From Liolophura sinensis (Eukaryota > Mollusca > Polyplacophora > Chitonida > Chitonidae): a DNA stretch of 64,000 nucleotides. The stretch spans positions 77,156,028 through 77,220,027 of the forward strand of contig NC_088295.1 in assembly GCF_032854445.1 (NCBI RefSeq), in the 5' to 3' direction. Made by a program: the position numbers and the translations under genes. Of this stretch, positions 26,640 to 64,000 are shown piece by piece. The notes below the pieces were generated by a model. That model was given only the letters and a program-made list of their open reading frames with translations, had not been told where the DNA came from and ran no database searches. The number at the start of each line of letters is the position of its first letter. Within the stretch, counting starts at the first letter, position 1.

Positions 26640-28318
26640 CTTTGTGACTATGTGTAGGTATTGATCCTCTCATCTTCACAAAGATCTACAAATAATGTAG
26701 ACCTACTCTCATTCCCTATATGCACTGTTAGACATTGTGACTATGTGTGGGTATTGATCCTCTCATCTTCACAAAGATCTACAGATAATGAAGACCTACT
26801 CTCATTCCCTATATGCACTGTTAGACATTGTGACTATGTGTGGGTATTGATCCTCTCGTCTTCACAAAGATCTACAGATAATGTAGACCTACTCTCATTC
26901 CCTATACGCACTGTTAGACATTGTCACTATGTGCGGGTATTGATCCTTTCATTTTCACTAAGATCTACAGATAATGTAGACCTACTCTCATTCCCTATAT
27001 GCACTGTTATACATTGTCACTATGTGCGGGTATTAATCCTCTCGTCTTTACAAAGATCTACGGATAATGTAGACTTACTCTCATTCCATATATGCACTGT
27101 TAGACATTGTGACTATGTGTGGGTATTGATCCTCTCGTCTTTACAAAGATCTACAGATAATGTAGACCTACTCTCATTCCCTATATGCACTGTTATACAT
27201 TGTAACTAAGTGCGGGTATTGATCCCCTCATCTTCACAAAGATCTACGCATCATGTAGACCAACCCTCATTCCCTATATGCAAAGTTAGACATTGTAACT
27301 ATGTGTGGGTATTGATTCTCTTATCTTCACAAAGATCTCTGCATAATGTAGACCAACTCTCATTCCCTATATGCTATGTTAAACACTGTGACTTTGTGTA
27401 GGAACTGATCCTCTTATCTTATTCCCTACTTTGTGTAGGAACTGATCCTCTCAACTTCAACAAGATCTGCAAATAATGTAGACCTACTCTCATTCCCTAT
27501 ACGCACTGTTAGACATTGTGACTATATGTGGATATTGATCCTCTCATCTTCTTAAAGATCTGCAGATAATATAGGCCTACACTCATTCCCTATATGCACT
27601 GTTAAACATTGTGACTATATGTGGATATTGATCCTCTCATCTTCACAAAGATCTGCAGATAATAAAGGCCTACACTCATTCCCTATATGCACTGTTAGAC
27701 ATTGTAACTATGTGCCGGTATTGATCCTCTCATTTTCACTAAGATCTACAGATAATGTAGACTTCCTCTCATTCCCTATATGCACTGTTATACATTGTAA
27801 CTATGTGCGGGTATTGATCCTCTTATCTTCACAAAGATCTGCACATAATGTTTTCCTACTCTCATTCCCTATATACACTGTTAGACATTGTAACTATGTG
27901 TGGGTATTGATCCTCTCGTCTTCACAAAGATCTGCAGATAATGTAGACCTACTCTCATTCCCTATACGCACTGTTAGACATTGTAACTATGTGCCGGTAT
28001 TGATCCTCTCATCTTCACAAAGATCTGCCCATAATGTAGACCTACTCTCATTCCATATATGTACTGTTAGACATTGTGACTTTGTGTGGGTATTGACCCT
28101 CTCATCTTCACAAAGATCTGCAGATAATGTTTTCCTACTCTCATTCCCTATATGCACTGTTAGACATTGTAACTATATGCGGGTATTGATCTTCTCATCT
28201 TCACAAAGATCTGCACATAATGAAGACCCACTCTTTTTCCCTATATGTACTGTTAGACACTGTGACTATGTGTCCTCTCATCTGCAGATAACGTAGGCCC
28301 ACTCCCATTCCCTGTATG
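26640..28318. repeat. 93-bp tandem repeat, about 18 units
   Basis: The unit contains TTAGACATTGTGACTATGTG, GGTATTGATCCTCTCATCTT, CACAAAGATCTACAGATAAT and CTCTCATTCCCTATATGCAC. Because 93 is divisible by three, long frames stay open (26661-27209, 27619-28296). They are broken by stops between segments, have no ATG-led start and show no splice context, so I do not call a gene. Confidence 0.92.
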
Positions 28319-30022: not shown

Positions 30023-33000
30023 GATTTATATCTCAGGTTGTATTCATATCAAAACTGTTAATAATACTCAGTGTAATAACAACAACTGTGGCTGACACAA
30101 CCACAAAATTAACTACACATACCACAACAACTGTGACTGAATTATCGACAAAATCAGATACAGATACCACAACAACTGTCCCTGACACATCCACAAAATC
30201 AGCTAGAGGTACCTCAACAACTGTGCCTGACACATCCACACCATCGGCTACAGATACTACAACAACTGAGCCTGACACATCCACCAAATCAGCTACAGAT
30301 ACCACAACAAGTGTGCCTGACACATCCACCAAATCAGCCACAGATACCACAACAGCTGTGCCTGATACATCCACAAAATTAGCTACAGACACGACAATAA
30401 CTGTGCCTGACACATCCACACCATCGGCTACAGATTCCACAACAACTGTGCCTGACACATCTACAAAATCAGCTACCGATACCACAACAACTGTGCCTGA
30501 CACATCCTCTAAACTAGCTACAGACACGACAACAACTGTGCCTGACACATCTACAAAATCACCTACAGATACCACAACAACTGTGCCTGCCACATCCACA
30601 AAATCAGCTACAGACACCACATCAGCTGTGCCTGACACATCCACAAAAATAGCTACAGATACCACAACAACTCTGACTGATTTATCGACAATATCAGCTA
30701 CAGATACCACAACAACTGTGCCTGACACATCCTCAATATCAGCTACAGTCACCACAACAACTGTGCCTGACACATCCACAAAAGTGGCCACAGGTACCAC
30801 AACAACTGTATCTAAAACATCCACAATATCAGCTACACATACCACAACAACTGTGCCTGACACATCCTCAATATCAGCTACGGATACCACAACAACTGTG
30901 CCTGACAAATCCACAAAACTTTCTACAGACACAACAACTACTGTGCCCGACACATCCACAAAAATAGCTACAGATACCACAACAACTGTGCCTGACACAT
31001 CCACAAAATCAGCTACAGGTACCTCAAAAACTGTGGCTGAAACATCCACATTATCAGCTACAGATACTACAACAACTGAGCCTGACACATCCACCAAATC
31101 AGCTACAGATACCACAAAAAGTGTGGCTGACACATCCAACAAATCAGCCACAGATACCACAACAGCTGTGCCTGACACATCCACAAAATCAGCTACAGAC
31201 ACGACAATAACTGTGCCTGACACATCCACAGCATCGGCTACAGATTCCACAACAACTGTGCCTGCCACATCTAGAAAATCATCTACAGACACCACAACAA
31301 CTGTGCCTGACACATCCTCAAAACTAGCTACAGACACGACAACAACTGTGCCTGACACATCAACAATATCAGCTACAGATACCACAACAACTGTGCCCGA
31401 ATCATCCACAAAATCAGCTACAGACACCACATCAACTGTGGCTAACACCACATCAACTGTGGCTGACACATCCACAAAATCAGCTACAGATACCACAACA
31501 ACTGTGCCTGACACATCCACAATATCAGCTACAGATACCACAACAACTGTGCTTGACACATCCACAAAACTGGCTACAGACACCACAACAAGTGTGGCTG
31601 ATATATCCACAAAATTAAATACAGTCACCACAACAACTTTGCCTAAAACATCCACAATATCAGCTACAGATACCACAACAACTGTGCCTGACACATCCTC
31701 AATATCAGCTACAGTCACCACAACAACTGTGCCTGACACATCCACAAAAGTGGCCACAGGTACCACAACAACTGTATCTAAAACATCCACAATATCAGCT
31801 ACACATACCACAACAACTGTGCCTGACACATCCTCAATATCAGCTACGGATACCACAACAACTGTGCCTGACAAATCCACAAAACTTTCTACATACACAA
31901 CAACTACTGTGCCCGACACATCCACAAAAATAGCTACAGATACCACAACAACTGTGCCTGACACATCCACAAAATCAGCTACAGGTACCTCAAAAACTGT
32001 GGCTAAAACATCCACATTATCAGCTACAGATACTACAACAACTGAGCCTGACACATCCACCAAATCAGCTACAGATACAACAAAAAGTGTGGCTGACACA
32101 TCCAACAAATCAGCCACAGATACCACAACAGCTGTGCCTGACACATCCACAAAATCAGCTACAGACACGACAATAACTGTGCCTGACACATCCACACCAT
32201 CGGCTACAGATTCCACAACAACTGTGCCTACCACATCTAGAAAATCATCTACAGACACCACAACAACTGTGTCTGACACATCCTCAAAACTAGCTACAGA
32301 CACGACAACAACTGTGCCTGACACATCAACAATATCAGCTACAGATACCACAACAAATGTGCCCGAATCATCCACAAAATCAGCTACAGACACCACTTCA
32401 ACTGTGGCTGACACAACATCAACTGTGGCTGACACATCCACAAAATCAGCTACAGATACCACAACAACTGTGCCTGACACATCCACAATATCAACTACAG
32501 ATACCACAACAACTGTGCTTGACACATCCACAAAACTGGCTACAGACACCACAACAAGTGTGGCTGATATATCCACAAAATTAAATACAGTCACCACAAC
32601 AACTTTGCCTGAAACATCCACAATATCAGCTACAGATACCACAACAACTGTGCCTGACACATCCATAATATCAGCTACAGTTACCACAACAACTGTGCCT
32701 GACACATCCACAAAAATAGCTACAGATACAACAACAACTGTGCCTGACAAATCCTCAATATCAGCTACGGATACCACAACAACTGTGCCTGACACATCCA
32801 CCAAACTGGCCACAGGTACCACAAAAACTGTCTCTAAAACATCCACAATATCAGCTACACATACCAAAACAACTGTGCCTGACACATCCTCAATATCAGC
32901 TACAGATACCACAACAACTCTTACTGACTTATCGACAATATCAGCTACAGATACCACAACAACTGTGCCTGACACATCCACAACATCAGCTACAGGTACC

Positions 33001-36000
33001 TCAACAACTGTGGCTGACACATCCACATTATCAGCTACAGATACTACAACAACTGTGCCTGAAACATCCACAAAATCACCTACAGATACCACAACAACTG
33101 TGCCTGACACATCAACAAAAGTGGCCACAGGTACCACAACAACTGTCTCTAAAACATTTACAATATCAGCTACACATACCACAACAACTATGCCTAACAC
33201 ATCCTCAATATCAGCTACGGATACCACAACAACTGTGGCTGACACATCCACAAAATCAGCTATAGATACCACAACAACTGTGCCTGACACATCCTCAATA
33301 TCAGCTACAGATACCACAACAACTCAGACTGACTTATCGACAATATCAGCCACAGATACCACAACAACTGTGTCTGACACATCCACGAAATCAGCTACAG
33401 GTACCTCAACAACTGTGGCTGACACATCCACATTATCAGCTACACATACTACAACAACTGAGCCTGACACATCCAAAAAATCAGCCACAGATACCACAAC
33501 AGCTATGCCTGACACATCCACAAAATCAGCTACAGACACGACAATAACTGTGCCTGACACATCCACACCATCGGCTACAGATTCCACAACAACTGTGCCT
33601 GACACATCTACAAAATCAGCTACAGATACCACAACAACTGTGCCTGACACATCCTCAAAACTAGCTACAGACACGACAACAACTGTGCCTGACACATCAA
33701 CAATATCAGCTACAGATACAACAACAACTGTGCCTGACACATCCACAAAATCAGCTACAGACACCACATCAACTGTGGCTGACACATTCACAAAATCAGC
33801 TACAGATACCACAACAACTGTGCCTGACACATCCACAATAACAGCTACAGATACCACAACATCTGTGGCTGACACATCCACAATATCAGCTACAGACACC
33901 ACAACAGCTGTGGCTGACACATCCACAATATCAGCTACACATACTACAACAACTGTGCCTGATACATCCATAAAACTGGCTACAGACACCACAACAAGTG
34001 TACCTGATATATCCACAAAATTAAATACAGTCACCACAACAACTGTGCCTTACACATCCACAATATCAACTACAGATCCCACAACAACTGTGCCTGACAC
34101 ATCCTCAATATCAGCTACACATACCACAACAACTGTGCCTGAAACATCCACAAAACTGTCTACAGATACCACAATAACTGTGCCTGACACATCCACAATA
34201 TCAGCTACACATACCACAACAACTGTGCCTGAAACATCCTCAGTATCAGCTATAGATACCACAACAACTGTGCCTGACACATCCACAAAAATAGCTACAG
34301 ATACCACAAAAACTGTGGCTGACACATCCACAATACCAGCTACAAATACCACAACAACTGTGCCTGACACATCCACAAAAATAGCTACAGATACCACAAC
34401 AACTTTGCCTGACACATACTCAATATTAGCTACGGATACTACAACAACTGTGCCTAACACATCTACAAAATCACCTACAGATACCACAACAACTGTGCCT
34501 GACACATCCACAAAATCAGCTACAGACACGACAGTAACTGTGCCTGACACATCCACACCATCGGCTACAGATTCCACAACAACTGTGCCTGACACATCTA
34601 CAAAATCAGCTACAGATACCACAACAACTGTGCCTGACACATCCTCAAAACTAGCTACAGACACGACAACAACTGAGCCTGACACATCAACAATATCAGC
34701 TACAAATACAACAAAAACTGTGCCTGACACATCCTCAATATCAACTATACAAACTACAACAATTGTGCCTGATACATCCACAAAACTGGCTACAGACACC
34801 ACAACAACTGTGGCTGATATATCCACAAAATCAGCTACAGTCACCACAACAACTGTGCCTGACACATCCACAATATCAGCTACAGATACCACAACAACTG
34901 TGCTGGACACATCCACAATATCAGCTACGGATACCATAACAACTGTGCCTGAGACATCCACAAAAGCAGCTATAGATACCACAACAACTGTTTCTGACAC
35001 ATCCACTAAATCAGCTACAAACACCACAACAACTGTGCCTGACACATCCACAAAACTAGCTATAGATACCACAACAACTGTGCCAGACACATCCACAATA
35101 TCGGCTACATATACCACAACAGCTGTGCCTGACACATCTACAAAATCAGCTACAGACACCACATCAACTGTGCCTGAAACATCCAAAAAATCAGCTACAG
35201 ACACTACATCAACTGTGCTTGACACATCCACAAAAGCGGCCACAGGTACCACAACAACTGTCTCTAAAACATCCACAATATCAGCTACACATACCACAAC
35301 AACTGTGCCTGACACATCCTCAATATCAGCTACGGATACCACAACAACTGTGGCTGACACATCCACAAAATCAGCTATAGATACCACAACAACTGTGCCT
35401 GACACATCCAGAAAATCAGCTACAGACACCACAACAACTGTGCCTGACACATCCACAAAACTAGCTACAGGGACCACAACAGCTGTGCCTGACACATCCA
35501 CAAAATCAGCTACAGATACCACAACAACTGAGCCTGACACATCCACAAAACTGTCTACAGTCACCACAACATCTGTGCCCGAAAAATCCACAAAATCAGC
35601 TACAGATACCACAACAACTGTGCCTGACACATCCACAAAATCAGCCACAGACACCACAACAACTGTTCCTGATACATCCACAAAGTTAGCTACAGATACC
35701 ACAACAACTGTGCCTGACACATCCTCAATATCAACTTCACATACCACAACAACTTTGCCTGATACATCCACAAAACTGGCTACAGACACCACAACAATTG
35801 TGGCTGATATATCCACAAAATCAGCTACAGTAACGACAACAACTGTGCCTGACACATCCACAATATCAGCTACAGGTACCACAACAACTGTGCCTGACAC
35901 ATCCACAAAACCAGCTACAGATACCACAACAACTGTGCCTGACACATCCACAATAATAGCTACAGATACCACAACAACTGTGCCTGACACATCCTCAATA

Positions 36001-39000
36001 TCAGCTACAGATACCACAACAACTGTGCCTGACACATCCACAATGTCAGTTACAGACACCACAACAACTGTGCCTGACACATCCACAAAAATAGCTACAG
36101 ATACCACAACAACTGTGCCTGACACACCCTCAATATTAGCTACAGTCACCACAACAACTGTGCCTGACACATCCACAAAAGTGGCCACAGGTACCACAAC
36201 AACTGTCTCTAAAACATCCACAACATCAGCTACACATACCGCAACAACTGTGCCTGATACATTCTCAATATCAGCTACAGATACCACAACAACTGTGCCT
36301 GACACATCCACAAAATCAGCTATAGATACCACAACAACTGTGATAGACACATCCACAAAACTAGCTACAGGGACCACAACAGCTGTGGCTGACACATCCA
36401 CAATATCAGCTACAGATACCACAACAACTGTGCCTGACACATCCACAATATCAGCTACGGATACCACAACAGCTGTGGCTAAGACATCCACAAAACCAGC
36501 TACAGATACCACAACAACTGTTCCTGATACATCCACAAAATCAGCTACAAACACCACAACAACTGTGCCTGACACATCCACAAAACTAGCTATAGATACC
36601 ACAACAACTGTGCCAGACACATCCACAATATCGGCTACATATACCACAAAAGCTGTGCCTGACACATCTACAAAATCAGCTACAGACACCACAATAGCTC
36701 CTCCTGACACATCTGCAATGTCAGCTACAGATACCACAACAACTGTGGCTGACACATCCACAATGTCAGTTACAGACACCACAACAACTGTGCCTGACAC
36801 ATCCACAAAAATAGCTACAGATACCACAACAACTGTCCCTGACACATCCACAAAATCAGGTACAGGTACCACAACATCTGTGGCTGACACATCCACAATA
36901 TCAGCTACACATACCACAACAACTGTGCCTGACACATCCACAAAACTGTCTAGAGACACCACAACATCTGTGCCCGACAAATCCACAAAATCAGCTACAG
37001 ATACCACAACAACTGTACCTGACACATCCACAAAATCAGCCACAGACACCACAACAACTTTTCCTGACACATCCACAAAATCAGCTACAGACACCACAAC
37101 AGGTCCTCCTGACACATCTGCAATGTCAGCTACAGATACCACAACAATTGTGCCTGACACATCCTCAATATCAGCTACAGTAACCACAACAACTGTGCCT
37201 GACACATCCACAAAAGTGGCCACAGGTACCACAACAACTGTCTCTAAAACATCCTCAATATCAGCTACACATACCACAACAACTGTGGCTGACACATCCA
37301 CAAAATCAGCTATAGACACCACAACAACTGTGCCTGACACATCCAAAAAATCAGCTACAGATACCACAACAACTGTGCCTGACACATTCACAATATCAGC
37401 TACAGATACCACAACAACTGTGCTTGACACATCCACAATATCGGCTACAGATACCACAACAACTGTGCCTGACACATCAACAATATCAGCTACAGATACC
37501 ACAACAACTGTGCCTGACACATCCACAATATCAGCTACGGATACCATAACAACTGTGGCTAAGACATCCACAAAAGCAGCTATAGATACCACAACAACTG
37601 TTCCTGACTCATCCACAAATCTAGCTATAGATACCACAACAACTGTGCCAGACACATCCACAATATCGGCTACATATACCACAACAGCTGTGCCTGACAC
37701 ATCTACAAAATCAGCTACAGACACCACAACAGCTCCTCCTGACACATCTGCAATGTCAGCTACAAATACCACAACAACTGTGCCTGACACATCCACAAAA
37801 TCAGCTACAGATACCACAACAACTGTGCCTGACACATCCACCAAATCAGCTTCAGATACCACAACAACTGTCCCTGACACATCCACAAAATCAGGTACAG
37901 GTACCACAACATCTGTGGCTGACACATCCACAATATCAGCTACAGATACCACAACAGTTGTGCCTGACACATCCACAAAATCAGCTATAGATACCACAAC
38001 AACTGTGCCTGACACATCCACAAAATCAGCTACAGATACCACAACAACTGTGCCATACACATCCACAAAACTAGCTACAGGGACCACAACAGCTGTGGCT
38101 GACACATCCACAATATCAGCTACAGATACCACAACAACTGTGCTGGACACATCCACAATATCAGCTACAGATACCACAACAACTGTGGCTGAGACATCCA
38201 CAAAATCAGCTACAGATACAACAACAACTGTTCCTAACACATCCACAAAATCAGCTACAGACACCACAACAACTGTGCCTGACACATCCACAAAACTAGC
38301 TATAGATACCACAACAACTGTGCCTGACACATCCACAATATCAGCTACGGATACCACAACAACTGTGGCTGAGACATCCACAAAACCAGCTACAGATACC
38401 ACAACAACTATTCCTGACACATCCACAAAATCAGCTACAGAAAACACAACAACTGTGCCTGACACATCCACAAAACTGTCTACAGACACCACAACATCTG
38501 TGCCCGACAAATCCACAAAATCAGCTACAGATACCACAACAACTCCGCCTGACACATCCACAAAATCAACTATACTTACCACAACACCTATGCCTGACAC
38601 ATCCACCAAGTTAGCAACAGGTTCCGCAACAACTGTGCCTGACACATCTACAAAACCATCTACAGATTCCACAACACCTGTAACTGAGACATCAACAAAA
38701 TTAGCTACAGATACCACAACACCTGTGGCTGAGATATCCACAAAATCAGCTGCAGATACCACACCAAGTGTGCCTGACACATCCACCAAGTTAGCTACAG
38801 GTTCCGCAACAACTGTGCCTGACACATCCCCAAAATCAGCTACAGATACCACAACCGCTGTGCCTGACACATCCACAAAATCATTCCCAGACACCACAAC
38901 AACTGTGCCTGACACATCCACAAAAATAGCTACAGATACCACAATTACTGTGCCTGACACATCCTCAAAATCAGCTACGGAAACCACAACAACTGTGCCT

Positions 39001-42000
39001 GACACATCTACAATGTCAGCTACAGACACCACACCAACTGTGCCTGACACATCCACAAAATCAGCTACAGATACCACAACAACTGTGCCTGACACATCCT
39101 CAATATCAGGTACAGTCACCACAACAACTGTGCCTGACACATCCACAAAAGTAGCCACAGGTACCACAACAACTGTCTTGAAAACATCCACAATATCAGC
39201 TACACGTACCACAACAACTGTGCCTGATACATCCACAAAACTGGCTACAGACACCACAACAACTGTGGCTGATATATCCACAAAATCAGCTACAGACACC
39301 ACAACAGCTCCTCCTGACACATCTGCAATGTCAGCTACAAATACCACAACAACTGTGCCTGACACATCCACAAAGTCAGCTACAGATACCACAACAACTG
39401 TGCCTGACACATCCACAATATCAGCTACACATACCACAACAACTGTGCCTAAAACATCCACAATATCAGCTACACATACCACAACAACTGTTCCTGAAAC
39501 ATCCACAAAATCAGCTACAGACACCACAACAGCTTCCTCTGACACATCTGCAATGTCAGCTACAGATACCACAACAACTGTGCCTGAAACATCCACAAAA
39601 ACAGGTACAGGTACCAGAACATCTGTGCCCGACACATCCACAATATCAGCTACACATACCACAACAACTGTGCCTGACACATCCACAATACTGTCTACAG
39701 ACACCACAACATCTGTGCCCGACAAATCCACAAAATCAGCTACAGATACCACACCAACTGTGCCTGACACATCCACCAAGTTAGCTATAGGTTCTGCAAC
39801 AACTGTGCCTGACACATCCGCAAAATTAGCTACAGATACCACAACAGCTGTGCCTGACATATCCACAAAATCATTCACAGATACCACAACAACTGTGCCT
39901 GACACATCCACAAAAATAGCTACAGATACCACAACAACTGTGCTTGACACATCCTCAATATCAGCTACAGTCACCACAACAACTGTGCCTGACACATCTG
40001 CAAAAATGGCCACAGGTACCACAACAACTGTCTCTAAAACATCAGCATTATCAGCTACACATACCACAACAACTGTGCCTGACACATCCTCAATATCAGC
40101 TACGGATACCACAACAACTGTGGCTGACACATCCACAAAATCAGCTATAGATACCACAACAACTGTGCCTGACACATCCAGGAAATCAGTTACAGATACC
40201 ACAACAACTGTGCCTGACACATCCACAAAACTAGCTACAGGGACCACAACAGCTGTGGCTGACACATCCACAATATCAGCTACAGATACCAAAACAACTG
40301 TGCTTGACACATCCACAATATCGGCTACAGATTCCACAACAACTGTGCCTGACACATCTACAAAATCAGCTACAGATACCACAACAACTGTGCCTGACAC
40401 ATCAACAAAATCAGCTACAGATACCACAACAACTGTGCCTGACACATCCTCAATATCAGCTACACATATTACAACAACTGTGCCTGATACATCCACAAAA
40501 CTGTCTACAGACACCACAACAACTGTGGCTAATATATTCACAAAATCATCTACGGTAACCACAACAACTGTGCCTGACACATCCACAATATCAACTACAG
40601 ATACCACAACAACTGTGCTGGACACATCCACAATACCAGCTACGGATACCATAACAACTGTGGCTGAGACATCCACAAAACCAGCTATAGATACCACAAC
40701 AACTATTCCTGACACATCCACAAAACCAGCTTCAGACACCACAACAACTGTGCCTGACACATCCACAAAACTAGCTATAGATACCACAACAACTGTGCCT
40801 GACACATCCACAATATCGGCTACATTTACCACAACAGCTGTGCCTGACACATCTACAAAATCAGCTACAGACACCACAACAGCTCCTCCTGACACATCTG
40901 CAATATCAGCTACAGATACCACAACAACTGTGCCTGACACATCCACAAAATCAGCTACAGATACCACAACAACTGTGCCGGACACATCCACAAAAATAGC
41001 TACGGATACCACAACAACTGTGCCTGACACATCCAGAAAATCAGCTACAGATACCACAACAACTGTGCCTGACACATCCACAAAACAAGCTACAGATACC
41101 ACAACAACTGTGCCTGACACATCCTCAATATCAGCAATAGATACCTCAACCACTGTGCCTGACACATCCGCAAAAGCAGCTACAGATACCACAACAACTG
41201 TTCCTGACATATCCACAAAATCAGCTACAGATACCACAACAACTGTGCCTGACACATCCACAATATCGGTTACATATACCACAACAACTGTGCCTGACAC
41301 ATCCACAAAACTAGCTATAGATACCACAACAACTGTGCCTGAGACAACCACAAAATCAGGTACAGACACCACAACAGCTCCTCCTGACACATCTGCAATG
41401 TCAGCTACACATACCACAACAACTGTGCCTGACACATCCACAAAATCAGCTACAGATACCACAACAACTGTGCCTGACACATCCACCAAATCAGCTACAG
41501 ATACCACAACAACTGTCCCTGACACATCCACAAAATCAGGTACAGGTACCACAACATCTGTGGCTGACACATCCACAATATCAGCTACAGATACCACAAC
41601 AACTGTGGCTGAGACATCCACAAAACCAGTTACAGATACCACAACAACTATTCCTGACACAACCACAAAGTTAGCTACAGATACCACAACAACTCCGCCT
41701 AACACATCTACAAAATCAACCATACTTACCACAACACCTATGCCTGACACATCCACCAAGTTAGCAACAGGTTCCGCAACAACTGTGCCTGACACATCTA
41801 CAAGATCATCTACAGATTCCACAACACCTGTGACTGAGACATCCACAAAGTTAGCTACAGATACCACAACACCTGTGGCTGAGATATCCTCAAAATCAGC
41901 TACAGATGCCACACCAACTGTGCCTGACACATCCACCAAGTTAGCTACAGGTTCCGCAACAACTGTGCCTGACACATCCCCAAAATCAGCTACAGATACC

Positions 42001-45000
42001 ACAACAGCTGTGCCTGACACATCCACAAAATCATTCTCAGATATCACAACAAATGTGCCCGACACATCCACAAAAATAGCTACAGATACCACATCTACTG
42101 TGCCTGACACATCCTCAATATCAGCTACGGATACCACAACAACTGTGCCTGACACATCTACAATGTCAGCTACAGAAACCACAACAACTGTGCCTGACAC
42201 ATCCACAAAAATAGCTACAGACACGACAATAACTGTGCATGACACATCCACACCATCGGCTACAGATTCCACAACAACTGTGCCTGACACATCTACAAAA
42301 TCAGCTACAGATACCACAACAACTGTGCCTGACTCATCCTCAAAACCAGCTACAGACACGGCAACAACTATGCCTGACACATCAACAATATCAGCTACAG
42401 ATACCACAACAACTGTGCCTGACACATCCACAAAATCAGCTACAGACACCACATCAACTGTGGCTGACACATCCACAAAATCAGCTACAGATACCACAAC
42501 AACTGTGTCTGACACATCCACAATATCAGCTACAGATACCACATCAACTGTGCCTGACACATCCACAATATCGGCTACAGATACCACAACAACTGTGACT
42601 GACAAATCAACAAAATCAGCTACAGATCCCACAACAACTGTGCCTGACACATCCTCAATATTAGCTACACATACTACAACAACTGTGCCTGATACATCCA
42701 TAAAACTGGCTACAGACACCACAACTAGTGTGGCTGATTTATCCACAAAATTAAATACAGTCACCACAACAACTGTGCCTGACACATCCACAATATCAGC
42801 TACACATACCACAACAACTGTGCCTGACACATCCACAATATCAACTACACATACCACAACAACTGTGCCTGACACATCCACAAAAATAGCTACAGATACC
42901 ACAACAACTGTGACTGACACATCCACCATATCAGCTACACATACCACAACAACTGTGCCTGACACATCAACAAAAATAGCTACAGATACCAAAACAATTG
43001 TGGCAGACACATCCACAATATCAGCTACAAATACCACAACGACTGTGCTTGACACATCCACAATATCAGCAACGGATACCACAACAACTGTGGCTGAGAC
43101 ATCCACAAAAGCAGCTAAAGATACCACAACAACTGTGGCTGACACATCCACAAAATCAGCTACAGACACCACAACAACTGTGCCTGACACATCCACAATA
43201 TCAGCTACACATACCACAACAACTGTTCCTGACACATCCACAAAATCAGCTACAGACACCACAACAGCTTCTCCTGACACATCTGCAATGTCAGCTACAG
43301 ATACCACAACAACTGTGCCTGACACATCCACAAAATCAGGTACAGGTACCACAACATCTGTGCCCGACACATCCACAATATCAGCTATAGATACCACAAC
43401 AACTGTGCCTGACACATCCACAAAACTGTCTACAGACACCACAACATCTGTGCCCGACAAATCCACAAAATCAGCTACAGATACCACAACAACTGTGCCT
43501 GACACATCCACAAAATTAGCTATAGATACCACAACAACTGTGCCTGACACATCCAGAAAATCAGCTACAGATACCACAACAACTGTGCCTGACACACCCA
43601 CAAAACTAGCTACAGATACCACAACAACTGTTCCTGACACATCCTCAATATCAGCTACAGATACCACAACAACTGTGCCTGACACATCCACAATGTCAGC
43701 TACAGACACCACATCAACTGTGCCTGACACATCCACAAAACTAGCTATAGATACCACAACAACTGTGCCTGAGACATCCACAAAATCAGGTACAGACACC
43801 ACAACAGCTCCTCCTGACACATCTGCAATGTCAGCTACAGATACCACAACAACTGTGCCTGACACATCCACAAAATTAGCTACAGATACCACAGCAACTG
43901 TGCCTGACACATCCACCAAATCAGCTACAGATACCACAACTGTCCCTGACACATCCACAAAATCAGGTACAGGTACCACAACATCTGTGGCTGACACATC
44001 CACAATATTAGCTACAGATACCACATCATCTGTGCCTGACACATCCACAAATTTGTCTACAGACACCACAACATCTGTGGCTGACAAATCCTCAAAATCA
44101 GCTACAGATACCACAACAACTGTGCCTGACACATCCACAAAATCAGCCACAGACACCACAAAAACTGTTCCTGATACATCCACAAAGTTAGCTACAGATA
44201 CCACAACAACTCCGCCTGACACATCCACAAAATCAACTATACTTACCACAACACCTATGCCGGACACATCCACCAAGGTAGCAATAGGTTCCGCAACAAC
44301 TGTGCCTGACACATCTACAAAATCATCTACAGATTCCACAACACCTGTGACTGAGACAACCACAAAATTAGCTACAGATACCACAACACCTGTGGCTGAG
44401 ATATCCTCAAAATCAGCTACAGATACCACACCAACTGTGCCTGACACATCCACCAAGTTAGCTACAGGTTCCGCAACAACTGTGCCTGACACATCCCCAA
44501 AATCAGCTACAGATACCACAACAGCTGTGCCTGACATATCCACAAAATCATTCACAGATACCACAACAACTGTGCCTGACACATCCACAAAAATAGCTAC
44601 AGATACCACAACTACTGTGCCTGACACATCCTCAATATCAGCTACAGAAACCACAACAACTGTGCCTGACACATCTACAATGTCAGCTACAGACACCACA
44701 CCAACTGTACCTGACACATCCACAAAATCAGCTACAGATACCACAACAACTGTGCCTGACACATCCTCAATATCAGCTACAGTCACCACAACAACTGTGC
44801 CTGACACATCCACAAAAGTGGCCACAGGTTCCACAACAACTGTCTCTAAAACATCCACACTATCAGCTACACATACCACAACAACTGCGCCTGATACATC
44901 CACAAAACTGGCTACAGACACCACAACAACTGTGGCTGATATATCCACAAAATCAGCTACAGTCACCACAACAACTGTGCCTGACACATCCACAATATCA

Positions 45001-48000
45001 GCTACAGTTACCACAACAACTGTTCTGGACACATCCACAATATCAGCTACGGATACCATAACAACTGTGGCTGAGACATCCACAAAAGCAGCTATAGATA
45101 CCACAACAACTGTTCCTGACACATCGACAAAATCAGTTACAGACACCACAACAACTGTGCCTGACACATCCACAAAACTAGCTATAGATACCACAACAAC
45201 TGTGCCAGACACATCCACAATATCGGCTACATATACCACAACAGCTGTGCCTGACACATCTACAAAATCAGCTATAGACACCACAGCAGCTTTTCCTGAC
45301 ACATCTGGAATGTCAGCTACGGATACCACAACAACTGTGCCTGACACATCCACAAAATCAGCTACAGATACCACAACAACTGTGCCTGACACATCCACCA
45401 AATCAGCTACAGATACCACAACAACTGTCCCTGACACATCCACAAAATCAGGTACAGGTACCACAACATCTGTGCCTGACACATCCACAATATCAGCTAC
45501 AGATACCACATCAACTCTGCCTGACACATCCACAAATTTGTCTACAGACACCACAACATCTGTGCCCGACAAATCCACAAATTCAGCTACAGATACCACA
45601 ACAACTGTGCCTGACACATCCACAAAATCAGCCACAGACACCACAACAACTGTTCCTGATACATCCACAAAGTTAGCTACAGATACCACAACAACTCCGC
45701 CTAACACATCCACAAAATCAACTATACTTACCACAACACCTATGCCTGACACATCCACCAAGTTAGCAACAGGTTCCGCAACAACTGTGCCTGACACATC
45801 TACAAAATCATCTACAGATTCCACAACACCTGTGACTGAGACATCCACAAAGTTAGCTACAGATACCACAACACCTGTGGCTGAGATATCCTCAAAATCA
45901 GCTACAGATGCCACACCAACTGTGCCTGACACATCCACCAAGTTAGCTACAGGTTCCGCAACAACTGTGCCTAACACATCCCCAAAATCAGCTACAGATA
46001 CCACAACAGCTGTGCCTGACACATCCACAAAATCATTCACAGATATCACAACAACTGTGCCCGACACATCCACAAAAATAGCTACAGATACCACATCTAC
46101 TGTGCCTGACACATCCACAATATCAGCTACGGATACCACAACAACTGTCCCTGACACATCTACAATGTCAGCTACAGACACCACAACAACTGTGCCTGAC
46201 ACATCCACAAAAATAGCTACAGACACGACAATAACTGTGCCTGACACATCCACACCATCGGCTACAGATTCCACAACAACTGTGCCTGACACATCTACAA
46301 AATCAGCTACAGATACCACAACAACTGTGCCTGACTCATCCTCAAAACCAGCTGCAGACACGACAACAACTATGCCTGACACATCAACAATATCAGCTAC
46401 ACATACCACAACAACTGTGCCTGACACATCCACAAAATCAGCTACAGACACCACATCAACTGTGGCTGACACATCAAGAAAATCAGCTACAGATACCACA
46501 ACAACTGTGCCTGACACATCCACAATATCAGCTACAGATACCACAACAACTGTGGCTGAGACATCCACAAAACCAGCTACAGATACCACAACAACTATTC
46601 CTGACACAACCACAAAATCATCTACAGACACCACAACAACTGTGCCTGACACATCCACAAAACTGTCTACAGACACCACAACATCTGTGCCCGACAAATC
46701 CACAAAATCAGCTACAGATACCACAACAACTCCGCCTGACACATCCACAAAATCAACTATACTTACCACAACACCTATGCCTGACACATCCACCAAGTTA
46801 GCAACAGGTTCCGCAACAACTGTACCTGACACATCTACAAAACCATCTACAGATTCCACAACACCTGTGATTGAGACATCCACAAAAATAGCTACATATA
46901 CCACAACACCTGTGGCTGAGATATCCACAAAATCAGCTACAGATACCACACCAAGTGTGCCTGACACATCCACCAAGTTAGCTACAGGTTCCGCAACAAC
47001 TGTGCCTGACACATCCCCAAAATCAGCTACAGATACCACAACAGCTGTGCCTGACATATCCACAAAATCATTCACAGATACCACAACAACTGTGCCTGAC
47101 ACATCCACAAAAATAGCTACAGATACCACAACTACTGTGCCTGACACATCCTCAATATCAGCTACGGAAACCACAACAACTGTGCCTGACACATCTACAA
47201 TGTCAGCTACAGACACCACACCAACGGTGACTGACACATCCACAAAATCAGCTACAAATACCACAACAACTGTGCCTGACACATCCTCAATATCAGCTAC
47301 AGTCACCACAACAACTGTGCCTGACACATCCACAAAAGTGGCCACAGGTTCCACAACAATTTTCTCTAAAACATCCACAATATCAGCTACACATACCACA
47401 ACAACTGTGCCTGATACGTCCACAAAACTGGCTACAAACACCACAACAACTGTGGCTGATATATCCACAAAATCAGCTACAGTCACCACAACAACTGTGC
47501 CTGACACATCCACAATATCAGCTACAGTTACCACAACAACTGTTCTGGACACATCCACAAAATCAGCTACGGATACCATAACAACTGAGGCTGAGACATC
47601 CACAAAAGCAGCTTTAGATACCACAACAACTGTTCCTGACACATCCACAAAATCAGTTACAGACACCACAACAGCTGTGCCTGACACATCTACAAAATCA
47701 GCTATAGACACCACAGCAGCTCCTCCTGACACATCTGGAATGTCAGCTACGGATACCACAACAACTGTGCCTGACACATCCACAAAATCAGCTACAGATA
47801 CCACAACTGTGCCTGACACATCCACCAAATCAGCTACAGATACCACAACAACTGTGCCTGACACATCCACAAAAATAGCTACAGACACGACAATAACTGT
47901 GCCTGAAACATCCACACCATCGGCTACAGATTCCACAACAACTGTGCCTGACACATCTACAAAATCAGCCACAGATACCACAACAACTGTGCCTGACTCA

Positions 48001-51000
48001 TCCTCAAAACCAGCTACAGACACGACAACAACTATGCCTGACACATCAACAATATCAGCTACAGATACCAAAACAACTGTGCCTGACACATCCATAAAAT
48101 CAGCTACAGACACTACATCAACAGTGGCTGACACATCCACAAAATCAGCTACAGATACCACAACAACTGTGCCTGACACATCCACAATATCAGCTACAGA
48201 TACCACAACAACTGTGGCTGAGACATCCACAAAACCAGTTACAGATACCACAACAACTATTCCTGACACAACCACAAAATCATCTACAGACACCACAACA
48301 ACTGTGCCTGACACATCCACAAAACTGTCTACAGACACCACAACATCTGTGCCCGACAAATCCACAAAATCAGCTATAGATACCACAACAACTCCGCCTG
48401 ACACATCCACAAAATCAACTATACTTACCACAACACCTATGCCTGACACATCCACCAAGTTAGCAACAGGTTCCGCAACAACTGTGTTTGACACATCTAC
48501 AAAACCATCTACAGGTTCCACAACACCTGTAACTGAGACATCCACAAAATTAGCTACAGATACCACAACACCTGTGGCTGAGATATCCACAAAATCAGCT
48601 ACAGATACCACACCAAGTGTGCCTGACACATCCACCAAGTTAGCTACAGGTTCCGCAACAACTGTGCCTGACACATCCCCAAAATCAGCTACAGATACCA
48701 CAACAGCTGTGAATGACATACCCACAAAATCATTCACAGATACCACAACAACTGTGCCTGACACATCCACAAAAATAGCTACAGATACCACAACTACTGT
48801 GCCTGACACATCCTCAATATCAGCTACGGAAACCACAACAACTGTGCCTGACACATCCACAATGTCAGCTACAGACACCACACCAACTGTGCCTGACACA
48901 TCCACAAAATCAGCTACAGACACCACAACAACTGTGCCTGACACATCCTCAATATCAGCTACAGTCACCACAACAACTGTGCCTGACACATCCACAAAAG
49001 TGGCCACAGGTTCCACAACAACTGTCTCTAAAACATCCACAATATCAGCTACACATACCACAACAACTCTGCCTGATACATCCACAAAACTGGCTACAGA
49101 CACCACAACAACTGTGGCTGATATATCCACAAAATCAGCTACAGTCACCACAACAACTGTGCCTGACACATCCCCAATATCAGCTACAGTTACCACAACA
49201 ACTGTTCTGGACACATCCACAATATCAGCTACGGATACCATAACAACTGTGGCTGAGACATCCACAAAAGCAGCTATAGATACCACAACAACTGTTCCTG
49301 ACACATCCACAAAATCAGTAACAGATACCACAACAACTGTGCCTGACACATCCACAAAATTAGCTACAGATACCACAGCAACTGTGCCTGACACATCCAC
49401 CAAATCAGCTACAGATACCACAACTGTCCCTGACACATCCACAAAATCAGGTACAGGTACCACAACATCTGTGGCTGACACATCCACAATATTAGCTACA
49501 GATACCACATCATCTGTGCCTGACACATCCACAAATTTGTCTACAGACACCACAACAACTGTGCCCGACAAATCCACAAATTCAGCTACAGATACCACAA
49601 CAACTGTGCCTGACACATCCACAAAATTAGCCACAGACACCACAACAACTGTGCCTGACACATCCACAATGTCAGCTACAGACACCACAACAACTGTGCC
49701 TGACACATCCACAAAACTAGCTATAGATACCACAACAACTGTGCCTGAGACATCCACAAAATCAGGTACAGACACCACAACAGCTCCTCCTGACACATCT
49801 GCAATGTCAGCTACAGATACCACAACAACTGTGCCTGACACATTCACAAAATTAGCTACAGATACCACAGCAACTGTGCCTGACACATCCACCAAATCAG
49901 CTACAGATACCACAACAACTGTCCCTGACACATCCACAAAATCAGGTACAGGTACCACAACATCTGTGGCTGACACATCCACAATATTAGCTACAGATAC
50001 CACATCATCTGTGCCTGACACATCCACAAATTTGTCTACAGACACCACAACATCTGTGGCTGACAAATCCTCAAAATCAGCTACAGATACCACAACAACT
50101 GTGCCTGACACATCCACAAAATCAGCCACAGACACCACAAAAACTGTTCCTGATACATCCACAAAGTTAGCTACAGATACCACAACAACTGTGCCTGACA
50201 CATCCACAAAATCAACTATACTTACCACAACACCTATGCCTGACACATCCACCAAGGTAGCAATAGGTTCCGCAACAACTGTGCCTGACACATCCACAAA
50301 ATTAGCTACAGATACCACAACACCTGTGGCTGAGATATCCTCAAAATCAGCTACAGATACCACACCAACTGTGCCTGACACATCCACCAAGTTAGCTACA
50401 GGTTCCGCAACAACTGTGCCTGACACATCCCCAAAATCAGCTACAGATAGCACAACAGCTTTGCCTGACACATCCACAAAATCATTCACAGATACCACAA
50501 CAACTGTGCCTGACACATCCACAAAATCAGCTACAGATACCACAACAACTGTGCCTGACACATCTACAATGTTAGCTACAGACACCACAACAACTGTGCC
50601 TGACACATCCACAAATAAAGCTACAGATACCACAACAACTGTGCCTGACACATCCACAATATCAGCTACAGTCACCACAACAACTGTGCCTGACACAACC
50701 ACAAAAGTGGGCACAGGTACCACAACTGTCTCTAAAACATCCACAATATCAGCTACACATACCACAACAACTGTGCCTGACACATCCACAAAATTAGCTA
50801 TAGATACCACAACAACTGTGCCTGACACATCCAGAAAATTAGCTACAGATACCACAACAACTGTGCCTGACACATCCACAAAACTAGCTACAGATACCAC
50901 AACAACTGTGCCTGACACATCCAAAATATCAGCTACAGATACCACAACAACTGTGCCTGACACATCCACAATGTCAGCTACAGACACCACAACAACTGTG

Positions 51001-53578
51001 CCTGACACATCCACAAGAAAAGCTACAGATACCACAACAACTGTGCCTGACACATCCTCAATATCAGCTACAGTTACCACAACAACTGTGCCTGACACAT
51101 CCACAAAAGTGGCCATAGGTACCACAACAACTGTCTCTAAAGCATCCAGAATATCAGCTACACATACCACAACAACTGTGCCTGACACATCCTCAATATT
51201 AGCTATAGATACCACAACAACTGTGCCTGACACATCCACAAAAGCAGCTACAGATACCACAACAACTGTTCCTGACATATCCACAAAATCAGCTACAGAT
51301 ACCACAACAACTGTGTCTGACACATCCACAATATCGGTTACATATACCACAACAACTGTGCCTGACACATCCACAAAACTAGCTATAGATACCACAACAA
51401 CTGTGCCTGAGACATCCACAAAATCAGGTACAGACACCACAACACCTCCTCCTGACACATCGGCAATGTCAGCTACAGATACCACAACAACTGTGCCTGA
51501 CACATCCACAAAATCAGCTACAGATACCACAACAACTGTGCCTGACACATCCACAAAATCAGCTACAGATACCAAAATATCTGTCCCTGACACATCCACA
51601 AAATCAGGTACAGGTACCACAACATCTGTTTATGACACATCCACAATATCAGCTACAGATACCACAACAACTGTGCCTGACACATCCACAAATGTGTCTA
51701 CAGACACCACAACATCTGTGCCCGACAAATCCACAAAATCAGCTACAGATACCACAACAACTGAGCCCGACACATCCACAAAATCAGCTATTGATACTAC
51801 AACAACTGTGCCTGACACATCCACCAAATCAGCTACAGATACCACAACAACTGAGGCTGACACATCCACAATATCAGCTACACATACCACAACAACTGTA
51901 CCAGACACATCCACAAAGTCAGGTACAGGTACCACAACATCTGTGGCTGACACATCCACAATATCAGCTACACATACCACATCAACTGTGCCTGACACAT
52001 CCACAAAACTGTCTACAGAGACTACAACAGTTGTGCCTGACACATCCACAAAATCAGCTACAGATACCACAACAACTGTGCCTGACACATCCACAAAATC
52101 AGCCACAGACACCACAACAACTGTTCCTGTTACATCCACAAAGTTAGCTACAGATACCACAACAACTCCGCCTGACACATCCACAAAATCAACTATACTT
52201 ACCACAACACCTATGCCTGACACATCCACCAAGTTAGCAACAGGTTCCGCAACAACTGTGCCTGACACATCTACAAAATCATCTACAGATTCCACAACAC
52301 CTGTGATTGAGACATCCACAAAATTAGCTACAGATACCACAACACCTGTGGCTGAGATATCCACAAAATCAGCTACAGATACCACAACAACTGTGCCTGA
52401 CACATCCACCAAGTTAGCTACAGGTTCCGCAACAACTGTGCGTGACACATCCCCAAAATCAGCTACAGATGCCACAACAGCTGTGCCTGACACATCCACA
52501 AAATCATTCACAGATACCACAACAACTGTGCCTGACACATCCACAAAATCCGACAACACCAGTACCACTTCAGGAATAATCACCACGAGAACTGTCGCAG
52601 AAACCACATCGACTTCTGTGGACACCACCACAATGAGAACAGTAGCCACTACAACATCAGCTCGGATAGGCAACAGCACAACTAACGCGTACACCACCAC
52701 AAAATCCGCCCCGGAAACCACCACAACCACAGCTACACCTGCGGACACCATCACAAAGACTGCTGTGGACACCACAACAACTTTCGCCGGCACCACCCAA
52801 AAATTTGTAGCAGAAACCACCTCAACGACTGTGTCAGACACAAGTGTATCTGGTGAGGACACCACAACAACTCATGTACCTGATACTGTCACAACAGCTT
52901 TGCCAGACACATCCACAACATCGGCTAGGAATACTACTGCAACGGCAGTTGCGCCCACTACTACAACACCACCTGTGTACTCCTCCGCAACAACTTCCGT
53001 GCTCAGCACCACACTTATTACCTCAATGGGTGCTGCCAAGACCACCACAGCTGCAGTGGACGTTACATCGACGGTAGCAGACACCACAGCAACAAGTGCA
53101 GGAGTCATCACTACAACGACTGCCGCCACGACGACTACTGCGGACACCACCAGGACAACAAGAGCGGACACCTCCACAACATCTGCAGCTGTCACTACTA
53201 CAACAGTTGTTCAGCCCTCCACAATAATAATAACACCTGTAGCCACCACAACAACAGGCCTTGCAGACATCACCGCAACGACTGATGCGGACACAACCGT
53301 AACTGATGAGGACACCACATCAACGACGATGGTGGACACTTCTGCAACGATTGCTGTGGATGCCACCACAACTACTGTCGTCGACACAGCAACTACCGCT
53401 GGAGAGACCACAACTACTGTGGTAGACAAAGCAAGTACTACTTTAGAGACCACACGAACAGCTGTGGCGGACATCACAACGACTGCAACTATTGTTGCAG
53501 ACACCACCAAAACGACTGCAAGAAGCACAATTACAACTGCAACAGACACCACAACAACCACTGTGGCCAACACGATAG
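30023..53578 (+). CDS. Giant mucin exon: Thr/Ser-rich repeat stalk, about 7,850 residues
   Basis: The reading frame is open from 29974 to 53589. A good acceptor (TTTATTTTTCAG) ends at 30022 and a donor (GATAG/GTTTGT) follows 53578, giving an exon of 23,556 bp entered after one base of a codon and left after one base. A second possible acceptor ends at 30036. The first residues include the hydrophobic run FISKLLIILSVI, then Thr-rich sequence. From about 30115 to 52548 lie some 498 units of 45 bp close to TVPDTSTKSATDTTT, roughly 45% Thr and 13-15% Ser, with one Pro per unit and essentially no Cys or aromatic residues. This is typical of a heavily O-glycosylated mucin PTS domain. Two 21-bp insertions and four 3-bp deletions keep the frame throughout. 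No in-frame ATG lies between the upstream stop (29971) and the repeats, so the start must be in another exon. Confidence 0.93.
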
Positions 53579-56500
53579 GTTTGTGTTGAAGTCTTTCTAA
53601 TTCTTTTTTCAAATTCATTTGACATTTCATTCATAATTAATATTTATTTATTTGCATATTTCCTTTGAGATGTCTTTAAACATTTTAAATTAGATTGTGC
53701 ATGATAATGTGAGCACCTCTGTAACGCCGTGACACCTACTTAATTATTCTATTATTGTTTTCGAAGAAAATATCACTCTATTGACCTGTAACAGAGGGTA
53801 GTTTTAGATGCAGAGTGGCGATTGTGTATTTTCCTGCTGTGTTTTCATACGTGTACATGATCTACACATGACGCTGGTTGGGCAACATAATGATGACGAC
53901 ATCGAACAGACCATGACTGAGAAGCTGATATTATGGTTGGTGGATTTACTCTGTGGGTCACAATTGGATTTAAACATGGATAGCTTGGTCCAAAATCTAG
54001 CAATCTACGCTGTGAGCTACTGTGCAATTCCCACTGGATATTAATTGTGTATGCATTGGAAAGATGATACCATTGTTACACTTGAGCAAGTGGAATACAT
54101 TTTTATTGGAATGATGCAGGAAAAAACCATCGCCGCAGTGAATGTGTCTCTGATATGATGGCAATGACACGAAAAGCATGACAACATTGGTGTTGGGCGT
54201 TCATTCATTTTTCAAGCATACTTATCCCTGGAGAAAATAGCTTACCTGACTTATGTTCTACGTACGGTACCACTACTTGAAATGAATACTAATATAATTC
54301 ACCATTGTAAAATAATGATACGTTTTATTATCAGCTGTTGTATAACTTCTAAATGTATGAAAAAAGTGCCGAAAATGCGAAATGTAAATGTGTACCAATT
54401 GTTTTAACCAGCGATTCCTCGAACCTAAAGAAGTAAGTGGAAATTATAGAGAAGGAGACATTGAATTGGTTCTGTTTATCCAGGAGCATTGCCATATAAA
54501 GTCGGGGATAATATATAACAGCTCTGAATTTTTGTATTAGGTCATGTCCATGATCTGATTAGCAAATTATCTGTCTACTTGAAACATTCATACAAGAGGT
54601 ATAGATCGAGCTGTATAAATTACACAGATGGACCGAAAAACTCGTCTTGAATTTTGCAGCCTTAAGGGCATTCGGCGTTGAAAACGGAGATGCTACCCTC
54701 ACTGGGGATGACCAACTGGCGATGGTATCCGTCAAAGACAGCTTGCCAACTTACGATTCGTCAGTTAACCGGGTGTACGTAAGTATTACAACGCCTGGCC
54801 AAGACAGCAAAAAAAAATAAGCAAACACTTTGAACCAAAGGTCGACTTAAAGTCCTTCCTTGAAGGTTTTCGTATCTTTATAAAATGTTGCCCGAATCAG
54901 GGAATTTGTGCATACCCCCGCTGTCATTGTTCGCATAAGGTGAGATGGTAACAAAAAGCGGCCGACAGCGCAAGTGTGCGTCAAGCCTTCTCGTCGCCAT
55001 AATGTTAGTGAACAATTCTTAAGTATGTTGTTAATCAACAAGCAAACGAAGTAGAACTGAAATTTTATTTCAAACGATTACCAGATATTCTTATTCTTTT
55101 CTTTTACACTGTTTGTGAAAGGCAAATAAAGATCAATCCATTCACAGTATAATTTGTATCTGTATGTTTTATCTGAACCTTTTGCCACATTACAGATCTC
55201 GACGAACGGCTATATGTCGTTGGGTACAGCGTTTAACGGCTTCACCCCTCAGCCTCTGGATACCGTTACTGCACGTGACATAATCTGCCCTTTTTGGGCG
55301 GACGCAATGACTATTCCCGAAGGCAATTCAGCCGTGTATTACAGAGTTTTAAACAAATCGTTCAAAGTGAAAGGCTACAGTTTCACTCAAGGTGACATCT
55401 TTAAATTTGTGGACAGTGAAATTAGGGCCAGGAGAAACGTGACGGATTTCGAGGCTCGATGGCTGTTAATAACAACATGGTATAGAATGATTCCATATGG
55501 AGCCACTCACCGTGTCGAGGTGAGCGATCTTTATTGTTGACATAAATGTTTTTTTTAGCAAAATACACCGTGTGTCTCATTAGGGCTGTTCCTTCAAACA
55601 ATACTGGGTGTATATGTAACTTACAGAGCTGATATACAAAGCACCTTTTGGTGAAGAGCCAAAATAAAAATTACGATTTTTTGGTTTTGTTTAAACAGTT
55701 TATTAATGTACATTTTGCTTTAAACACCGGTGTGTGGCTTTGTTTTAACAACCCATGTTTATGCTGCGTACATTGCAGACAACCACGTTTCAGTCCATGG
55801 TTGTAACAGATCATGTCAGATCGTTCGTGTTCTTTCTTTACCCTAACGGCGAGATGAAATGGCCAGAGAACAACATAGACGGCCTTCCAGTCGTCGGAAC
55901 GCGCTCATCCATCAACATTATCAAGAACTTCTATTCGCAGAAAATAAGAGCCTTGCGAATAAGCGATTATCCTGGAAACACGGGTAAGTTGTATAGCGTC
56001 AGAATTTGCCGCATTCTGATTTCAGTTGGGGACAGAAAAGATTTTACCTCATGTCACTGAACGTTAGGGACATACAGACGCCTAGATCTTTCTTATTTTC
56101 TTGTTAAATAAAAATTATTTGATATGACACAGTGGAAGCAATTTTAAGTCTTCTCACCACAGAGTTCAGTAATCGGTTAGGGCGTTTATAAAATGTTGCA
56201 TATTACCATCCGATATTTCTTTCCCTGATACGGTCAAAATGAAGCCAACAGGGAAAATGACATGGAGACAAACGTAGCTTGAGAACACAATGCCTGACTT
56301 GGGGCGAGAGTATCGTTTTGCCGACAATGCTTGCTTAGGATAGAAGAAGGAGATAAATCGGAAAAACGTTGTTGAAATATCCCAAACTTTATTCAAAGAG
56401 GTTGAATCAAACAAGCATTAATTTTTGAGTAACGGTAAATATGCAATTTACTGCGTACAGTCCTCATACAGTGTAGTTCGATATAAGACTTTAAATACCT

Positions 56501-63534: not shown

Positions 63535-64000
63535 GTACTACTAAACTTAGAGTTTGATGATGTCACTGACACATTATTGGCACTCAATTCAGAAGTTGCC
63601 ATTATCGTATTTTGATTTTTGCGGGCAGATGACATATTAATATAATGTCACACAGCGCTTATTTAAAAACACTCAATTCATTGGACTCATTATGTTTTGT
63701 AGCGTCTAGACCAGATATTGTTATAATGATGCGCTAAGCCACAGTCGTACTTTCCTTTACTGGCTCAGATCGTGTGGCGTCTTCGATACATTTACAGTGT
63801 GTATTAACAACGCTCGGTTTTCTCCTACACTGTAAAATCTACCGTCAAAGGGAACACAACACAAAAAATCCCATGTCACAGATAAAATTAACAGAGTGGA
63901 TAGATATGTATGGTGGGTTGAAATTTCTTCTCGATTCCGTTCTTAACCTCATTCATTAGCTACTTTCGCAAAACGCCTGAAGTCAATTTTTTTCAAGGAA
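63535..64000 (+). other. Start of the intron after the EGF exon
   Basis: The sequence begins GTACTA. No exon completing the EGF-like domain is seen before the window ends, so the intron probably continues. Confidence 0.65.

What the first reader, a model, noticed from the sequence alone, without database searches (positions are those of the whole stretch)
30023..53578. A single coding exon of about 23.6 kb
One uninterrupted frame, from a plausible acceptor to a plausible donor, encodes some 7,850 residues. This is longer than the largest human mucin exon I know of (the MUC16 exon of roughly 21-22 kb), so it may rank among the largest animal coding exons.
Basis: partly seen in the sequence, partly recalled or inferred. 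Interest (0 to 1): 0.85.

Follow-up and report, generated by a model that had tools for sequence, protein, structure and literature searches.

The report
Giant repeat exon of MUC4-like mucin
The stretch looks like one real, very long protein-coding exon for the sugar-carrying repeat part of a MUC4-like mucin in an unnamed animal, but it is not a size record, because human MUC4 and MUC12 exons can be longer.

Summary
The frame is real: + strand 29974-53589 has 7,871 codons before its stop; the proposed exon 30023-53578 is 23,556 nt, phase 1 at both ends. It holds about 500 units of 15 residues (494 of 500 exactly 45 bp), 54.5% Thr+Ser. It lies in phase with exons for NIDO and VWD with GDPH; C8-3 of MUC4 type and EGF exons follow. 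A gene 75 kb upstream has a 1,218-nt exon in the same place and phase: the best evidence for a single exon. None of 1,032 AG sites scanned inside reaches acceptor score 2, though one model acceptor scores -1.2. The size claim fails: reported human MUC4 VNTR alleles reach 27,843 bp and MUC12 proteins 23,080 residues (PMC13345508). Open points: a stronger in-phase donor at 52853 would give 22,830 nt; first exon and membrane anchor are not fixed; downstream exon 61135-61339 has two frame breaks against both neighbours, from assembly error or recent damage; expression is untested. Large, but a new member of a known kind.

The parts
30023..53578 (+). giant PTS (mucin-type repeat) exon, 23,556 nt, phase 1-1; could end at 52852 by the alternative donor
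30023..30093 (+). hydrophobic, signal-peptide-like start (FISQVVFISKLLIILSVITTTVA); no Met in it, so a start codon must come from an upstream exon
30073..52602 (+). array of about 500 units (494 of 500 are 45 bp, two 66, four 42), consensus DTTTTVPDTSTKSAT; TRF gives 30079-52550, 499.7 copies
52603..53578 (+). degenerate Thr-rich end of the exon, open in only one of the three + frames
54660..54778 (+). exon, start of the NIDO region, phase 1 in, 0 out
55196..55519 (+). exon, NIDO
55779..55983 (+). exon, NIDO end
57511..57770 (+). exon, AMOP-like cysteine region (below the Pfam cut-off)
59147..59357 (+). exon, second half of the AMOP-like region
59727..59981 (+). exon, VWD with GDPH motif
60231..60362 (+). 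exon, VWD continued (weak acceptor score, -1.2)
61135..61339 (+). exon, VWD end; two frame breaks relative to both neighbouring genes and an in-frame stop as assembled
62048..62293 (+). exon, MUC4-type C8-3 domain (PF23263)
62692..62900 (+). exon (approximate ends), Big_9 / cadherin-like domain
63347..63535 (+). exon (approximate ends), cysteine-rich EGF-like stretch by eye; EGF exons continue beyond the window in L001

Best explanation
This is the single PTS exon (exon 2 in MUC4 terms) of a MUC4-like NIDO-VWD mucin gene. Shown: the open frame, the 15-residue Thr/Ser-rich repeat, phase-compatible exons for NIDO and VWD with GDPH downstream, C8-3 and EGF exons after them, and a like-placed exon in a neighbouring gene. 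Inferred: an upstream exon supplies the start of a signal peptide; the repeat becomes densely O-glycosylated and forms a long stiff brush; the chain is cut at GDPH as proposed for MUC4, leaving the giant mucin part held to an EGF-rich part at or near the cell surface, where it lubricates and shields epithelium. The array grew by in-register duplication of 45-bp units and of blocks near 1 kb, which cannot shift the frame because unit lengths are multiples of three.
For: Frame and phases; NIDO E 1.2e-23, C8-3_MUC4 E 2.9e-11, EGF_CA E 9.1e-40; VWD segment alone 25.9 bits over the 22.9 cut-off. Gene 1 upstream: a 1,218-nt PTS exon, phase 1-1, 406 codons without a stop, then a NIDO exon entering in phase 1, a signal-peptide exon candidate (one of 8 listed) and a transmembrane segment at its end. 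The first NIDO exon of gene 3 also enters in phase 1 (phase read by eye). Inside the exon 0 of 1,032 AG sites reach score 2, against 9.7% of 2,004 AG sites outside; seven of nine model acceptors score 3.0 or more. All 301-mers of the array are unique and the longest exact repeat is 276 nt, so long reads should size it; this is inference, no reads were seen.
Against: No transcript. The donor at 53579 is weak (4.1) and 52853 is better. Two of nine model acceptors score below 3.0, one at -1.2, below the best AG sites inside the array, so the score does not exclude internal acceptors. Exon 61135-61339 has two frame breaks and its exit phase (2) does not fit the next exon as I read it. AMOP does not reach its cut-off (13.9 against 25 bits), and VWD is just under it in the longer protein (22.2 against 22.9). 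The genome-wide AMOP and VWD lists do not include this gene. A transmembrane exon for this gene is not fixed: one search lists two weak hydrophobic stretches, and the gene 1 and gene 3 transmembrane exons find nothing better than E 0.41 in its tail. Replacement and silent changes occur in the neutral ratio (0.998), so the repeat itself shows no constraint beyond the lack of stops.
Confidence: 0.85

Rival explanations
1. The exon is genuine but ends at 52852, not 53578, so it is 22,830 nt; the next 242 residues are intron or alternatively used.
For: Donor score 8.8 against 4.1, and exon end in the same phase 1, so it also joins the NIDO exon in frame.
Against: The frame stays open and Thr/Ser-rich (48.3%) for another 242 residues; 0 of 5,000 Markov copies of 52603-53578 were open in any + frame. 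Within 53000-54300 only two GT sites score better than 53579, and both lie beyond the stop.
Confidence: 0.25
2. The gene is recently inactivated or truncated: the frame breaks in the VWD exon are real, and the open array is a fresh relic or makes a shortened secreted mucin.
For: Two frame breaks near 61209-61218 and 61271 against both gene 1 and gene 3, none in the two control alignments; an in-frame stop as assembled.
Against: The eight model exons before it, and the later ones that I read, are open; the array has no stop; breaks next to short C runs also fit consensus errors.
Confidence: 0.15
3. A non-coding satellite that happens to be open in one frame.
For: The reverse strand also has a 17.6 kb stop-free frame; a 463-bp array in the same window is open over its whole length; neutral N/S ratio; no third-position excess.
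Against: In-phase acceptor and NIDO exon, the like-placed exon in gene 1, mucin-type composition. Seven of the eight other arrays that I tested are not open throughout, a weak control: they are 347-3,058 bp long and only the two 93-bp ones have a unit divisible by three.
Confidence: 0.04

Closest known systems
Human MUC4 exon 2
   Same: Signal-peptide exon, then a largest exon E2 of short tandem repeats (48 bp there, 45 bp here) (PMC2360313 passages); NIDO, AMOP, VWD with GDPH and EGF regions in the protein (PMC8660890 passages)
   Different: More EGF domains here (three in MUC4; many exons here); AMOP match below cut-off; no transmembrane exon fixed for this gene; tandem cluster
MUC4-like genes of sea anemones (PMC9080433, passages)
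   Same: Invertebrate NIDO-AMOP-VWD mucins with PTS-rich parts of very variable length
   Different: The word exon does not occur in that main text, so exon size cannot be compared
Drosophila Muc14A (passages of PMC7108745, PMC10355832, PMC2515642)
   Same: Very large invertebrate mucin with coding tandem repeats; gene of 52.6 kb
   Different: Repeats of about 271-300 nt; no MUC4-type domains mentioned in the passages I saw
Human MUC12 and MUC16 VNTR exons (PMC13345508)
   Same: Giant PTS exon of a membrane-tethered mucin
   Different: Other domains after the repeat, without NIDO/AMOP/VWD (recalled)

Membership tests
MUC4-type mucin | NIDO domain after the PTS region | tested here: met
   PF06119 E 1.2e-23, 84.6 bits over 25
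MUC4-type mucin | AMOP domain | tested here: inconclusive
   PF03782 E 0.061, 13.9 bits under 25; gene 1 14 bits, gene 3 no hit; not in the genome list of 8 AMOP matches
MUC4-type mucin | VWD domain with GDPH | tested here: met
   25.9 bits over 22.9 for the segment alone, but 22.2, just under, in the longer protein, and not in the genome list; GDPH encoded at 59738
MUC4-type mucin | C8-3 domain of MUC4 type | tested here: met
   PF23263 E 2.9e-11, 42.9 bits over 25
MUC4-type mucin | EGF domains | tested here: met
   EGF_CA E 9.1e-40 and 8.9e-26 in joined exon translations of L001 and L002
MUC4-type mucin | one large repeat exon directly after the signal-peptide exon | tested here: inconclusive
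   Large exon met; 10 first-exon candidates in 10000-30010, six open through the join, none singled out
MUC4-type mucin | transmembrane segment | tested here: inconclusive
   Found at the ends of gene 1 and gene 3; for this gene only two weak hydrophobic stretches, L002:2617-2835 and 8250-8336, untested as exons
mucin in general | tandemly repeated Thr/Ser/Pro-rich domain | tested here: met
   54.5% Thr+Ser, 6.2% Pro, no Cys in 7,852 residues
mucin in general | dense O-glycosylation and expression in epithelium | not testable with these tools
   needs protein and RNA

The most novel reading that the evidence does not exclude
Gene 2 and gene 3 are one transcription unit: giant PTS, NIDO-VWD-EGF, a second PTS exon (starting at L002:5805, frame open to 8109), an ephrin-receptor-like exon and a second NIDO-VWD-EGF block before the transmembrane segment at 77257029, a double-module membrane mucin well over 10,000 residues. 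The phases at the EGF-like/second-PTS junction (2/2) and, with the GTATGT donor, at the ephrin-like/NIDO junction (1/1), read by eye from the sequence printed, allow it. Against it: one search shows a hydrophobic stretch at L002:8250-8336 between the second PTS frame and the ephrin-like exon that could be a separate membrane anchor.
Probability: 0.15. Interest if true: 0.5.

Novelty: new member of a known kind. Interest (0 to 1): 0.33.

Why it matters
It suggests that the MUC4 plan of one giant repeat exon ahead of a NIDO exon also exists in a gene cluster of another animal, with only weak AMOP resemblance, and that such an exon can be about 19 times as long as its neighbour's (23,556 against 1,218 nt) while staying in one frame. 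It is a clean test case for how PTS arrays expand.

Tried and rejected
Openness as proof of coding: weak alone, because frame -2 is nearly as empty of stops; distinct unit types give 0 against 30.2 expected, but the three stop-making changes are each unremarkable. Third-position excess: none (0.108, 0.098, 0.109). The array elsewhere in the genome: the protein search gave 83 matches, 64 by my count in this array and 19 elsewhere, those at 36% identity or less with open frames of at most 695 residues; 150 of 1,655 candidates were scored. The same search by DNA could not be scored. AMOP (8 matches) and VWD (72 matches) genome lists do not include this gene. SEA domain: the exons named sea1/sea2 in my scripts gave no Pfam SEA match, so none is claimed. 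First exon: 10 candidates in 10000-30010 with donor score 6 or more, four with a stop at the join, six open, not resolved. Solved structures: the AMOP-like to VWD part matches VWD parts of Fc-gamma binding protein (2.8e-10 for the whole chain, no stretch passing alone) and mucin-5AC (2.9e-5), which adds nothing beyond VWD. Literature: searches. I saw their listings and abstract starts; passages of PMC13345508, PMC10355832, PMC7108745, PMC2360313, PMC13336835, PMC10475054, PMC2515642, PMC9080433 and PMC8660890; and section 6 of PMC13345508. The two gastropod papers had nothing on exon size. I claim nothing about what is not in print. Organism: not identified.

Full report
Observation. The + strand of the window is open from 29974 to 53589, 7,871 codons and a stop, the longest stop-free run on either strand. 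The proposed exon 30023-53578 is 23,556 nt, preceded by a T-rich tract and AG and followed by GT, phase 1 at both ends. The array 30073-52602 was cut into 500 units; 494 are exactly 45 bp, two are 66 and four 42; TRF gives 499.7 copies over 30079-52550. The consensus is DTTTTVPDTSTKSAT. The exon's protein is 54.5% Thr+Ser, has no cysteine and a backbone of about 789 kDa.

Is openness more than chance? Partly. Independent substitution at the observed rates predicts about 41 stops in the + frame; 0 are seen. But frame -2 shows 3 against 39, so relatedness of the units and uneven sites explain much of such a deficit. Counting distinct unit types, 0 stops against 30.2 expected, yet each stop-making change has neighbours of the same kind that are equally rare. 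The ratio of replacement to silent change is 0.998 of the neutral one. Seven of eight other arrays that I tested in the window are not open throughout; one, 463 bp long, is; they are short and mostly not multiples of three, so this control is weak. The degenerate tail 52603-53578 is open where 0 of 5,000 Markov copies were.

Context. Eight further model exons follow within 54660-61339. They encode NIDO (1.2e-23), an AMOP-like region below cut-off (0.061), and VWD with GDPH (25.9 bits over 22.9 for the segment alone; 22.2, just under, in the longer protein). Then come a MUC4-type C8-3 domain (2.9e-11) and many EGF exons in the next 10 kb. The window is G000:C1:77156028-77220027 of a 609 Mb genome in 632 contigs.

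Neighbours. Gene 1, upstream, has a PTS exon 77110921-77112138 of 1,218 nt, phase 1-1, 406 codons without a stop, NIDO next, and a transmembrane segment near 77149800. A signal-peptide exon candidate lies at 77108965-77109004, chosen by eye for hydrophobicity among 8 listed (coordinates counted from 77100000). Gene 3, downstream, has NIDO, AMOP-like, VWD and EGF exons and a transmembrane segment near 77257029; its first NIDO exon also enters in phase 1 (sequence, phase read by eye). This shared plan is the main evidence that the giant stretch is one exon, about 19 times as long as gene 1's.

Splicing inside. Of 1,032 AG sites in 30100-53560 none reaches 2 on a simple acceptor score; outside the exon 9.7% of 2,004 do. 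The nine model acceptors range from -1.2 to 7.6; seven are 3.0 or more. Because one model acceptor scores -1.2, the score cannot exclude an internal site. Of 683 GT sites 59 score 4 or more and seven 5 or more; the best, 52853 (8.8), is in the same phase as 53579 (4.1). The exon may therefore end at 52852. The score tables are general values recalled by me, not trained on this genome.

Assembly. All 301-mers of the array are unique and the longest exact repeat is 276 nt; 900-nt blocks match elsewhere in the array at up to 97.6%, so part of the growth was by block duplication. This is no read-level test.

Against the gene. Exon 61135-61339 shows two frame breaks against the homologous exons of gene 1 and gene 3, at about 61209-61218 and 61271, with none in the two control alignments. 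As assembled it holds a stop, and its exit phase is 2, which does not fit the next exon as I read it. Assembly error and recent damage both remain possible. The membrane anchor of this gene is open: one search lists two weak hydrophobic stretches in L002 (2617-2835 and 8250-8336), and the transmembrane exons of genes 1 and 3 find nothing better than E 0.41 in its tail.

Known kinds. Human MUC4 has a signal-peptide exon and a largest exon E2 with a 48-bp repeat, exons up to 22 kb (PMC2360313, passages), and is putatively cut at GDPH in VWD (PMC8660890, passages). Its longest VNTR allele in a 2026 preprint is 27,843 bp, and MUC12 is said there to hold the largest human coding exon, predicted proteins up to 23,080 residues (PMC13345508). 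Drosophila mucin-like proteins range to 23,000 residues (PMC2515642 abstract). The exon is thus large but within the known range.

Verdict. Real, MUC4-like, a new member of a known kind; the record claim is not supported.

Noticed in passing
window 34050-51629, - strand: A 17.6 kb stop-free frame opposite the array, probably a by-product of the repeat.
   Followed up: partly
window 61135-61339: VWD exon with two frame breaks against both neighbouring genes.
   Followed up: partly
window 31378 and 32344: Two 66-bp units 966 bp apart; 900-nt blocks around there match at about 94-97% at that distance.
   Followed up: partly
L003-L005, L008-L009 (77107001-77156027): A MUC4-like gene upstream with a short PTS exon and a transmembrane end.
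   Followed up: partly
L002:5791-8109: A second PTS-rich open frame of 773 codons between gene 2 and the NIDO exons of gene 3.
   Followed up: partly
L002:8250-8336 and 2617-2835: Two weak hydrophobic stretches that could be membrane anchors; splice sites not tested.
   Followed up: no
L002:9444-9600: The second NIDO exon of gene 3 seems, by eye, to change frame near its start (sequence).
   Followed up: no
window 11159-14216, 20087-21405, 26635-28273, 56781-57516: Other minisatellite arrays outside the model exons, units near 58, 89, 93 and 82 bp.
   Followed up: partly
window 16244-16706: A 29-bp array within long open runs of all three + frames.
   Followed up: no
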